From Pollenia angustigena (Eukaryota > Arthropoda > Insecta > Diptera > Polleniidae), in the NCBI GenBank assembly GCA_930367215.1, contig OV884058.1:221630208-221694207 (forward strand): DNA of 64,000 bases. Reading direction: 5' to 3'. The stretch's first letter is position 1, and every line of letters starts with the position of its first letter. Positions 23,001 to 34,277 of the stretch are shown piece by piece. A program made the position numbers and the translations under genes. Below the pieces are notes generated by a model, which searched no databases, had not been told where the DNA came from, and saw nothing but the letters and a program-made list of their open reading frames with translations.

Positions 23001-26000
23001 TTCTAACAGCGTAAATATGTTGCATTGTTGTCTGCATTAGACCCCTGTAAAATATTATTTATTTACTTTTAGTGTAAGAGCCCGCGGCTTGACCTTAAAT
23101 TTTATTAAATTTTGAACAAACAACAATAGCATCGTATTGCAGAAAAACATATAATAGTTCGTGAAAATATTGTCAGAACCATCCATGACTCTATGCGATA
23201 AAAAATCAAGAGAAGGTCTTATATAGACGAAACTTAAATCAAGATAAGAGATACCCAAATTTAACAGTAAACAAGATGTTGTATAAAAAAAAGTTTAATT
23301 TAAAATGTTTTCACTTTTAATTAATAATAATATTAAATAAAATTTAAAAAATGGCTTTTTTCAAAAATACTTATGTGTGGTTTATAGAACACGAGCGCCT
23401 TACTCGTCCGTTCAACTTACATTTAAAACAAAAACTAATTTCGAAATTTCGAATTACTGCCTGTATTTCAAAATAAAACGAAAATCAAAGTTATTTACGG
23501 GAATACAATTCAAAAATTCCCAATTTTTCATATTTGATAAATACACTGAAAATTATTGTTGAGGGAAAGCTAGCTCCTATGCGCATTTCACTGGTTGCTT
23601 AGGCCAGATCATCAGGAAACCTTTTCCAAAGATTTTAGAAAAGCTAAAAATATACAAATAAAACCCTAGGTAGGTAGGTAGAAAGGCCGGTGTGAAGTCT
23701 CCTTCACACCTTCACCCAGAGACCAATATGGTCCATTGTTATGCCTTATTCAGAGATAGCCCTAGGGAGATAGAAAGTTAGTTAAATAAACAGAGAAAGT
23801 ATAAGATAAATAGGAAAGAAGGTTTCGGACCAAACCCGAGAGAAATCCTACTCAACCAAATACGCCCTACGTGCGTCCAGCATCCAGCCTACTCTCGCGC
23901 GGCCAGGCCATCCCCATTACGAATCCTATCAGATTCTCGAGTCCGCAACCCGAGACATCCCCTAATTCGCCCAGGAATCTACTGCCCAGCCACCTCCGCC
24001 TGCTGCCCTGCAACCTGGGACAGTGGCACAGAATGTGCTCCACCGTCTCCAACTACTCAGGGTCCTCACACAACCTGCACATATCCGACAAATCGGATCC
24101 CATCCTCACCGCCATCCTGCCTATCATACAGTGGCCCGTGATCATTCCTATCATGGTCCTAACGCAGACCCTACTCCTGCCCAGCAGCAAAACCGAATCG
24201 GACTTACTAAGCACCGGCCACAGCGTCCGTGATACCCGACAGTCCGTTCGGTTCCCCCAGGCCCGATTGGTCGCGCCCACAATACATTCCCTGATTCTTC
24301 CAAAATAGAATGCCATTGGAGGCCTAACCGCCTCCAAACAGTTAGGATCCTCCATCTCTGAGCCCTGTCTCGCCAACCCATCAGTAATCTCATTGCCGAC
24401 TATGTCGCAGTGACCCGGCACCCAGCACAACCTTAGCAAATACTCCCCTAAGACTGCTCCAAGAGCCTTCCTACAATCATCAACCAGCTTGGAGTTCACA
24501 TAACAGCCCCTTACGGCCATAAGAGCCGCCTGGCTGTCCACATATATAGTGACCTCCGAGCCCCTATCAATGTTGTCCCTTATCAGTTCCACGGCCCTCA
24601 AGACCCCCAGAACCTCCGCCTGAAAAACACTGCAGTCGTCAGGAAGCCTATATGACCTTCTGATGTTCAGATCCTCAATGTAGACCCCCGCACCCGTGTC
24701 CCTCATATTCGAGCCATCAGTGAAAATAGCAAATCCACTAAATAATCTGCCCCTACCTGACCAGCTCTCCCTAGAAGGAACTAAAACCCTAAAGCGAATA
24801 AGATTTTTTAACACTCAAAGTCTTACTTGTAACAATATCAAAGCTTAAACAAAACACCAACAATAAACAGTGAGTTTATCTTTTCTTACATCCCCCTACA
24901 ATTGGTTGGGTTCTATCCGACTCGAATTGTAGTTGTAAGTGGGTAAAAAGAAAAAACAAAATTAAAAAACAAATTGTTCCATTCTATTGTCTTCGCAAGA
25001 AAACAACAAAAAAAAAAACAATTTGGCAATTCAGTTTTCTGCACGGGCACATGCAAGTATATTATCAAAGTTATTTACGGGAATACAAAATTTACTATTA
25101 AGATTTTTGTATGACGTGCTAAATTCTCAATTTTTCATATTTGATAAATACACTGAAATTTATTGTTGAGGGAAAGCTAGCTCCTATGCGCATTTCACTG
25201 GTTGCTTAGGCCAGATCATCAGGAAACCTTTTCCAAAGATTTAAGAAAAGCTAAAAATATTATACAAATAAAACCCTAAAGCGAATAAGAATTTTAAACA
25301 CTCAAAGTCTTACTTGTAACAATATCAAAGCTTAAACAAAACACCAACAATAAACAGTGAGTTTATCTTTTCTTACATCCCCCTACAATTGGTTGGGTTC
25401 TTTCCGACTCGAATTGTAGTTGTAAGTGGGTAAAAAAAAAAAACAAAATTAAAAAACAAAAACAAAACCAATATTTTAATAAATTTCTAAACGAAAATTT
25501 TTATTTTAGTTTGAAAAACAGGAAGTTAATTCTTAGGAGGAATTTTTTACTTTTTTTTAGTAATTTTTATATGTTTTAACGTAAGACAACAAAGTATTTT
25601 TAGTTTTTCACATACATGTATGTATTTCTTTGAAAATGTAGGTTTTATTACTCCTATTGATTCTAAAGTTCTTCATTTCAAATCGGGTAATTAACAGCCT
25701 GTTCAACGATTTCAAACGTTAACATTCGAAATCGATGAACAGGTTGTAAGACTTGAATTCTACATCATTACATCCTTAAACTTTTAATATTTCCTTTAAA
25801 TAAGTATGTATGAGTTTCCTAAAAAATTAAGTAGGAGCGTCATGCTTTCTAGTTAGACACAAAATGCAACATCTTCGTTTACATGCCAATAAAACAAAGA
25901 ATAGAGAAAAGCATCAATAACAATATTAAATATAAGAAGAAAATTTTAAACCTGACAATTAAAAAAAAATAGAATAAACACTGTATCAACGTTTAAAAGA

Positions 26001-33671: not shown

Positions 33672-34277
33672 CAGTGAAATGCATAGGAATAGCTTATCCC
33701 ATCAACAATAAATTTCAATTGTTTTTGTCAAGAATAAAAACTGGGAATTAAGCACGAATAACAAAATCTTTTGAAATTAAAATTTTGTATTCCCAAAAAT
33801 TGAAATTACTTTTTGATAAACAGGCAAGTGCACGGCCTAAAAAACACTTAATTGACAACATCTTTTGTAAGTTGTTGTGTTGTTTTTCTTAACCTACTTA
33901 CAACTACAATTAATGTTGAGAGAATTTCAACTAATTGTAGTGGGGAATGTAAGATGAGATAAACCCACTGTTGTTTATTGTTGATGTGTTTTGTTTAAGC
34001 TTTGATATTGTTACAAGTAGAACTGTTGCTATAATTCTTATACGTTTAACAATTTTATTTGGTTTAATATCTTTAGTTTTTCTAAAATCTTTATGGATGA
34101 AGTTTCCTGATGATCTGGCCTAAGCAACCAGTGAAATGCATAGGAATAGCTTATCCCATCAACAATAAATTTCAAGTGTTTTTGTCAAGAATAAAAACTG
34201 GGAATTAAGCACGAATAACAAAATCTTTTGAAATTAAAATTTTGTATTCCCAAAAATTGAAATTACTTTTTGTTATA
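33672..34277 (+). mobile_element. Hammerhead-ribozyme direct-repeat element, second locus
   Basis: A 147-bp block beginning CCAGTGAAATGCATAGG is repeated directly (33672-~33813 and 34130-34277). The distance between the predicted ribozyme cut sites is 457 bp. The enclosed part matches, inverted and diverged, the 23484-25460 unit (e.g. GCTTTGATATTGTTACAAGTA, CAATAAA...CCCACTG). The spacer GGCAAGTGCACGG corresponds to the other locus's CTTGCATGTGCCCGTGC. So the unit-spacer-unit order is conserved between two independent loci. Confidence 0.75.
34095..34156 (+). ncRNA. Type-I hammerhead ribozyme motif, divergent copy
   Basis: GGATGAAGTTTC, CTGATGA (34107-34113), stem II CTGG/CCAG, GAAA (34133-34136), palindromic stem III ATGCAT, predicted cut between 34142 and 34143, then GGAATAGCTTATCC. 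The outer stem I here pairs GGAT-AA with TTATCC, whereas the other locus pairs GGAAAA with TTTCC: the sequence changed on both sides while pairing is kept. The 3' half alone occurs again at 33672-33699. Confidence 0.78.

What the first reader, a model, noticed from the sequence alone, without database searches (positions are those of the whole stretch)
23484..34277. A hammerhead-ribozyme tandem-repeat (retrozyme-like) family in a fly genome
Two loci (23484-25460 minus, 33672-34277 plus) have direct repeats with the same order unit-spacer-unit, monomers of 484 and 457 bp, and a type-I hammerhead (CTGATGA, stem II, GAAA, palindromic 6-8 nt stem III, NUH cut, bulged stem I). Stem I differs between loci but stays paired: GGAAAA/TTTCC versus GGAT-AA/TTATCC. 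A short self-complementary stem III is the hallmark of hammerheads that work as dimers in retrozymes, Penelope-like elements and newt satellite. This could be a nonautonomous RNA-circle-based element mobilised by another retroelement.
Basis: partly seen in the sequence, partly recalled or inferred. Interest (0 to 1): 0.9.

Follow-up and report, generated by a model that had tools for sequence, protein, structure and literature searches.

The report
Hammerhead-ribozyme repeats with Penelope-type ends
This genome, likely a fly's, holds more than 22,000 exact copies of two hammerhead-ribozyme motifs in short noncoding repeats whose sampled insertions end the way Penelope retrotransposons do, so the repeat likely spreads as a self-cut, predicted circular RNA that the resident Penelope enzyme would copy into DNA, which would answer what moves such elements in animals.

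Summary
Both loci carry a type-I hammerhead with the stems described and belong to one dispersed family: 10,689 A-type plus 11,336 B-type exact cores in 1.37 Gb, against 0 for reversed patterns. Across 17 aligned ribozymes 93.7% of stem cells pair (at most 49% when slid) and 3 pairs change on both sides. Rfam finds no hammerhead, but also misses the resident Penelope one.

The main result is how copies inserted. In the listed clusters arms always diverge head to head (17 of 17 strand switches). Outer ends fall about 95 or 130 nt after the predicted cut. Of 32 head-to-head insertions, 24 have one arm at each site, 3 have both at one site and 5 have an end elsewhere. Junctions share words of 9 bp or more in 19 of 30, and paired arms share variants. 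This is the published layout of Penelope-like elements, whose open frames and own minimal hammerhead are resident.

Likely mechanism: a circular RNA copied from both sides of one target break by Penelope enzyme. Cleavage, circles and the enzyme step are untested; retrozyme and Penelope start regions are not significantly alike.

The parts
33636..34275 (+). Locus B: one B-type insertion, a 40-bp inverted piece joined head to head to a 1.3-unit direct arm
   Evidence: BLAST against the unit: inverted 94..55, then direct 443..457, 1..457, 1..133
33636..33675 (-). Inverted arm of locus B, outer end at unit position 94 (site 1)
34095..34156 (+). Complete type-I hammerhead of locus B; predicted cut after 34142
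   Evidence: sequence; pair counts on the alignment
34200..34251 (+). Predicted hairpin GGGAAT...ATTCCC downstream of the ribozyme; site 1 falls inside it
   Evidence: RNA fold -9.8 kcal/mol against -5.3 (sd 2.2) in shuffles; coordinates
34275..34275 (+). Outer end of the direct arm at unit position 133 (site 2)
33628..33641 (.). Left copy of the 14-bp word shared by the junctions, TATAATAATAATAT (low complexity; may overlap the element by a few bases)
   Evidence: letters checked (shifted there by one base)
34274..34287 (.). Right copy of the 14-bp word
23484..25460 (-). Locus A: two tandem A-type units, one split by a LINE-type fragment; outer end at unit position 121 (site 2) at 23484
   Evidence: no clear target duplication found
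25171..25234 (-). Complete type-I hammerhead of locus A; predicted cut 3' of 25185 (minus strand)
23564..23627 (-). Second complete hammerhead of locus A; predicted cut 3' of 23578 (minus strand)
23669..24778 (-). LINE-type fragment inserted into one A unit (not part of the element)
   Evidence: 253-aa frame matching Pfam RNase_H, E 1.3e-8; AAAACCCTA at both junctions, read by eye

Best explanation
The two loci are copies of a noncoding repeat family whose units carry a type-I hammerhead motif and whose sampled insertion ends have the Penelope-type layout, and the family likely moves as a self-cleaved, predicted circular RNA that a resident Penelope-like enzyme would copy into DNA. Proposed cycle: (1) a tandem genomic array is transcribed (inferred). 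(2) Hammerheads, whose stem III is a palindrome without a loop, pair in twos and cut the transcript into unit-length RNA (predicted from structure). (3) The monomer is circularised, probably by a host RtcB-type ligase (inferred from published animal retrozymes). (4) A Penelope-like RT/endonuclease binds near the hairpin downstream of the ribozyme, makes a staggered break in AT-rich DNA and primes reverse transcription from both sides, one arm starting at site 1 (about +95) and the other at site 2 (about +130). The end positions, their pairing and the duplications are shown; the enzyme and the order of events are inferred. (5) Copying round the circle gives two diverging tandem arms joined in the middle (the structure is shown, the process inferred).
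For: 22,025 exact cores, 0 in reversed controls. Structure-respecting variation: 93.7% of cells paired against at most 49% slid, 3 pairs changed on both sides. Two strands of the G-C subtype fold unconstrained as a double hammerhead. 3' ends at 86-110 or 119-139 of the unit: 23 of 25 for A loci and 29 of 32 for B loci. Minus-to-plus strand switches 17, plus-to-minus 0, in clusters among the first 100 listed hits of each type. One arm at each site in 24 of 32 head-to-head insertions, 24 of the 27 with both ends at a site (P 2.5e-5 against one half). Junction words of 9 bp or more in 19 of 30 against 6.6% of 870 mismatched pairs. Paired arms share 41% of variants against 11% for non-partners (P 5e-5). 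Resident Penelope copy L067 has the same layout: ends 83 and 115 nt after its own hammerhead cut, inverted pLTR. Published: anole Penelope starts reverse transcription at two adjacent internal sites, explains the tail, cuts and extends both DNA strands, prefers AT-rich DNA; rotifer Penelope has inverted pLTRs, a 31-bp tail on one of them and 8-10-bp duplications. One insertion joins a Penelope copy ending at its site 1 directly to a retrozyme unit (L063).
Against: No RNA evidence at all. Rfam finds no hammerhead. Single strands fold no better than shuffles, and the type B dimer prefers another fold. Stem III shows no covariation inside the family: of 100 listed first-base variants (151 in all) 1 keeps a palindrome and 15 share one broken form (my count). 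The retrozyme and Penelope start regions are not significantly similar in 14 comparisons, best P 0.077, and the Penelope hairpin folds no better than shuffles (-4.2 against -5.0). Eight of 32 insertions break the one-end-each rule. By plain identity the partner arm was the best match in only 8 of 24, and related subfamilies may add to the shared-variant result. The Penelope-retrozyme junction is one event plus a 99% duplicate.
Confidence: 0.78

Rival explanations
1. The repeats are mobilised by a LINE, and the inverted arms come from twin priming during LINE-type insertion.
For: LINE fragments are present, one inside locus A; 5' truncation and variable target duplications also occur in LINE insertions; the literature names LINEs as an alternative.
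Against: Twin priming (recalled) would leave the outer end of the inverted piece at a random internal site; here both outer ends lie at two fixed sites in 27 of 32 insertions. No poly-A or simple-repeat 3' tail is seen at the junctions printed.
Confidence: 0.1
2. The element is an internally deleted Penelope copy (a nonautonomous Penelope) rather than a retrozyme of separate origin; its ribozyme is a lengthened Penelope hammerhead.
For: Same order of parts: hammerhead, then the two end sites 83-135 nt downstream; a 2024 review proposes that retrozymes are reduced Penelope elements.
Against: No significant similarity of the units to the five Penelope copies examined; the ribozymes differ in core letter 7, stem II and stem III.
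Confidence: 0.25
3. The units are an ordinary satellite or a fold-back DNA transposon, and the hammerhead match is a relic without function.
For: Homogeneous tandem arrays and inverted arms; a block near C4:202 Mb is repeated.
Against: Dispersed insertions with target duplications of varying length, 5' ends spread along the unit, two asymmetric outer ends and single-arm copies; ribozyme pairs kept through two-sided changes.
Confidence: 0.03

Closest known systems
Metazoan non-LTR retrozymes (Cervera and de la Pena 2020, PMC7229834; parts 1-4 of 6 read)
   Same: Noncoding tandem units with type-I hammerheads, low GC, many dispersed copies; weak palindromic stem III and a U.U mismatch at the base of stem II, as in the two axolotl ribozymes, which work better as dimers.
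   Different: Units of about 457-490 nt, longer than the published 170-400 nt; head-to-head arms with two fixed end sites, which the parts I read do not describe; no RNA evidence here.
Penelope-like elements (PMC11167929, abstract and parts 1-2 of 4; PMC3846280, passages)
   Same: Hammerhead followed by two end sites 31-40 nt apart (the tail), inverted head-to-head copies, AT-rich targets, short target duplications, tandem copies.
   Different: The units code for nothing (longest ATG frame 35-37 aa) and have a longer hammerhead; the resident Penelope elements carry their own minimal one, CTGAAGA...GAAACGTT.
Plant LTR retrozymes (described in PMC7229834 and PMC7761336, passages)
   Same: Nonautonomous, ribozyme-bearing, RNA circle as proposed intermediate.
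   Different: Plants have type III hammerheads, LTR/PBS/PPT features and 4-bp target duplications; here the hammerhead is type I and the junction words are longer.

Membership tests
Metazoan non-LTR retrozyme | Type-I hammerhead in each unit | tested here: met
Metazoan non-LTR retrozyme | Short tandem units of 150-450 bp (circRNAs 170-400 nt) | tested here: inconclusive
   Tandem yes; units 457-493 bp, slightly longer
Metazoan non-LTR retrozyme | Low GC (under 45-50%) and no coding capacity | tested here: met
   GC 30.5% (A) and 28.9% (B); longest ATG frame 35 and 37 aa
Metazoan non-LTR retrozyme | Expression as self-cleaved linear and circular RNA | not testable with these tools
   No RNA data available
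Penelope-like element (as a member) | One ORF with RT and GIY-YIG endonuclease | tested here: not met
   Units are noncoding; resident Penelope elements are separate
Penelope-type insertion (as a way of working) | Two alternative 3' ends 30-40 nt apart downstream of the hammerhead, tail on one arm | tested here: met
   Sites about 95 and 130; one of each in 24 of 32 insertions
Penelope-type insertion (as a way of working) | Inverted, head-to-head copies and short AT-rich target duplications | tested here: met
   17 of 17 switches; junction words of 9 bp or more in 19 of 30, 16 of these words 87.5% AT
Penelope-type insertion (as a way of working) | Significant sequence similarity of the start region to a resident Penelope family | tested here: inconclusive
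   None significant in 14 comparisons (2 unit types, 7 start regions from 5 copies; best P 0.077); most resident copies were not sampled

The most novel reading that the evidence does not exclude
Animal retrozymes are parasites of Penelope retrotransposons: a Penelope enzyme takes one RNA circle, fires from both sides of a single staggered target break using two fixed start sites, one per arm, and rolls round the circle in both arms, building two diverging tandem arrays in one event.
Probability: 0.55. Interest if true: 0.86.

Novelty: new variant of a known kind. Interest (0 to 1): 0.72.

Why it matters
What moves animal retrozymes is open: the 2020 paper calls Penelope elements only a strong candidate and a 2024 review still says LINEs or Penelope elements. 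Here many insertion junctions carry the Penelope layout, in a genome with over 22,000 ribozyme cores and open Penelope frames, so the question becomes directly testable. The one-end-each tendency (24 of 32) and the variants shared between arms would also constrain how a Penelope enzyme builds an insertion, a mechanism about which relatively little is known.

Tried and rejected
Rfam at gathering and lax thresholds over the window, both loci, three relatives and one Penelope copy: no hammerhead. The genome-wide Rfam Hammerhead_1 search rang nowhere, controls included, so it does not show absence. Similarity of retrozyme and Penelope start regions: not significant; a shared motif that I noted by eye (note) is therefore not used as evidence. 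Plain-identity test of paired arms: partner best in 8 of 24; the shared-variant test was positive. L065 looked like a retrozyme-Penelope fusion, but about 380 bp of other sequence lies between them. The L063 junction is one event plus a duplicate. No stem III covariation inside the family. Dropped before the count of 32: L025, L013 and their neighbours, because one end was cut by the edge of the fetched stretch; a first tally of 25 of 28 had wrongly kept L025 and is replaced. Twin priming, satellite expansion and fold-back transposon were considered and ranked as rivals. A genome-wide count of the Penelope hammerhead was asked for and not answered. Papers: PMC7229834 parts 1-4 of 6 and PMC11167929 parts 1-2 of 4 read; passages of PMC3846280, PMC8969392, PMC7761336 and PMC11722881; others only in search listings; PMC4209133, PMC5785218 and PMC8557442 are not held. 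That I found no junction evidence in print rests on searches alone.

Full report
What was checked. The window is G000:C3:221630208-221694207 in a 1.37-Gb genome of 31 contigs. The hammerhead core occurs three times in it without mismatch, 0 expected. Locus A (23484-25460, minus) is two tandem units, one split by a LINE-type fragment with an RNase H domain. Locus B (33636-34275, plus) is a 1.3-unit arm joined head to head to a short inverted piece.

The ribozyme. Type A reads GGAAA-A-GGUUUC-CUGAUGA-U-CUGG-loop-CCAG-U-GAA-AUGCGCAU-A, cut, GGAGCU-AGC-UUUCC. Type B keeps core and loop, changes stem I to GGAUGA/UUAUCC and shortens stem III to AUGCAU. The A pattern CTGATGA-N12-26-GAAATGCGCATA has 10,689 exact matches genome-wide and the B pattern 11,336; the reversed controls have 0. 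In the first 100 listed A-type cores the bases at the foot of stem II are U.U in 69, G-C in 16, G.U in 10, U/C in 4 and A/C in 1. In 17 aligned ribozymes (16 distinct) 93.7% of cells pair against 34-49% when slid, and three pairs change on both sides. Two strands of the G-C subtype (L109) fold unconstrained into a double hammerhead at -44.7 kcal/mol; type A comes within 1 kcal/mol of its best fold, type B does not. Single strands do not fold better than shuffles. Stem III gives no covariation support inside the family: of 151 variants at its first base 100 were listed, 1 keeps a palindrome and 15 share one broken form (my count). Axolotl retrozymes have the same two kinds of weak stem III and, in one, the same U.U mismatch, and cleave better as dimers (PMC7229834).

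The insertions. Unit coordinates start after the predicted cut. 3' ends at 86-110 or 119-139: 23 of 25 in the A loci (two of them, L045 and L048, lie in one repeated block) and 29 of 32 in the B loci. In clusters among the first 100 listed hits of each type, strand switches from minus to plus number 12 (B) and 5 (A), from plus to minus 0, so arms diverge and their 3' ends face outwards. Three arrays have a measurable period in both arms, and the modal period agrees (469/469, 469/469, 470/470). I examined 32 head-to-head insertions: 14 in fetched loci and 18 by their edges. In 24 one arm ends at each site; 2 have both at site 2 (L022, whose right end lies 4 bp from the edge of the fetched stretch, and L071/L072), 1 has both at site 1 (L099/L100, whose left flank looks like another copy) and 5 have an end elsewhere (L011, L029, L089/L090, L093/L094, L105/L106). 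The two junctions share a word of 9 bp or more in 19 of 30 insertions against 6.6% of 870 mismatched pairs. In 12 insertions the two arms share 41% of variants against 11% for non-partners, permutation P 5e-5, the floor of 20,000 permutations; by plain identity the partner was best in only 8 of 24.

Penelope elements. GIY-YIG matches and a Penelope protein search with 120 matches from 118 scored of 8,203 candidates, ten with open frames of 823-840 aa, show resident elements. Pfam on two full ORFs gave no RT or GIY-YIG match at E 0.1, but a close relative (L065) matches GIY-YIG above cut-off and the listed protein relatives carry precomputed RT domains; the organisms named among them are flies. 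L067 has an inverted pLTR ending at its coordinate 1398, a direct end at 1430 and its own hammerhead, CTGAAGA...GAAACGTT, cut at 1315 (identified by me from the motif), so its ends lie 83 and 115 nt after the cut; ACATATAAAAT at both junctions was read by eye. Of 40 scored pLTR matches 17 end at query 268-276 (the second site), 13 reach the query end and 10, all on C14, end at 321. In print, an anole Penelope enzyme starts reverse transcription at two adjacent internal sites, the genomic tail is the stretch between them, both DNA strands are cut and extended, and targets are AT-rich (PMC11167929). From the numbers given there, its starts lie about 85-92 nt after its hammerhead cut (my arithmetic). 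Rotifer Penelope copies have inverted pLTRs, a 31-bp tail on one of them and 8-10-bp duplications (PMC3846280).

Interpretation. The retrozyme insertions show the structural marks of Penelope insertion that I could test; twin priming or satellite expansion would not give them all. Transcription, self-cleavage, circularisation and the enzyme are inferred. A hairpin can be drawn around site 1 in both elements: in the units it is somewhat more stable than in shuffles (-7.9 and -9.8 against -5.0 and -5.3), in Penelope it is not (-4.2 against -5.0), and the sequences are not significantly alike. The exact partner family is therefore unknown. In L063 a Penelope copy ending at its site 1 runs directly into a retrozyme unit, which suggests a template jump but is one event.

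Standing against the literature. Animal retrozymes are known and insects are named among their hosts. Mobilisation by Penelope elements is proposed. I found no paper with junction evidence (searches; subscription papers are mostly not held). I rate this a new variant of a known kind whose value is the junction evidence and the one-end-each tendency.

Noticed in passing
G000:C14:522000-593000: Dense cluster of near-identical Penelope copies in both orientations over about 70 kb of one small contig, ten of them sharing a pLTR end (query 321) not seen in the other hits.
   Followed up: no
15 of 100 listed hits, e.g. L124: A ribozyme subfamily whose stem III reads ACGCACAU, no longer a palindrome, yet it has spread to many places; unexplained under the dimer model.
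   Followed up: partly
G000:C4:202208000-202239000: A-type arrays repeated in both orientations at about 18-kb steps, looking like a segmental duplication.
   Followed up: no
window 12488-12596 and 20786-20899: Near-perfect palindromes (fold-back, MITE-like) that score weakly as plant or animal microRNA precursors below the gathering cut-offs.
   Followed up: no
window 35970-36453, 41851-42445, 44528-45259: Tandem repeats of about 153, 161 and 153 bp.
   Followed up: no
window 34918-35739: Inverted repeat with 137-nt arms, 90% complementary, 548 nt apart, just downstream of locus B.
   Followed up: no
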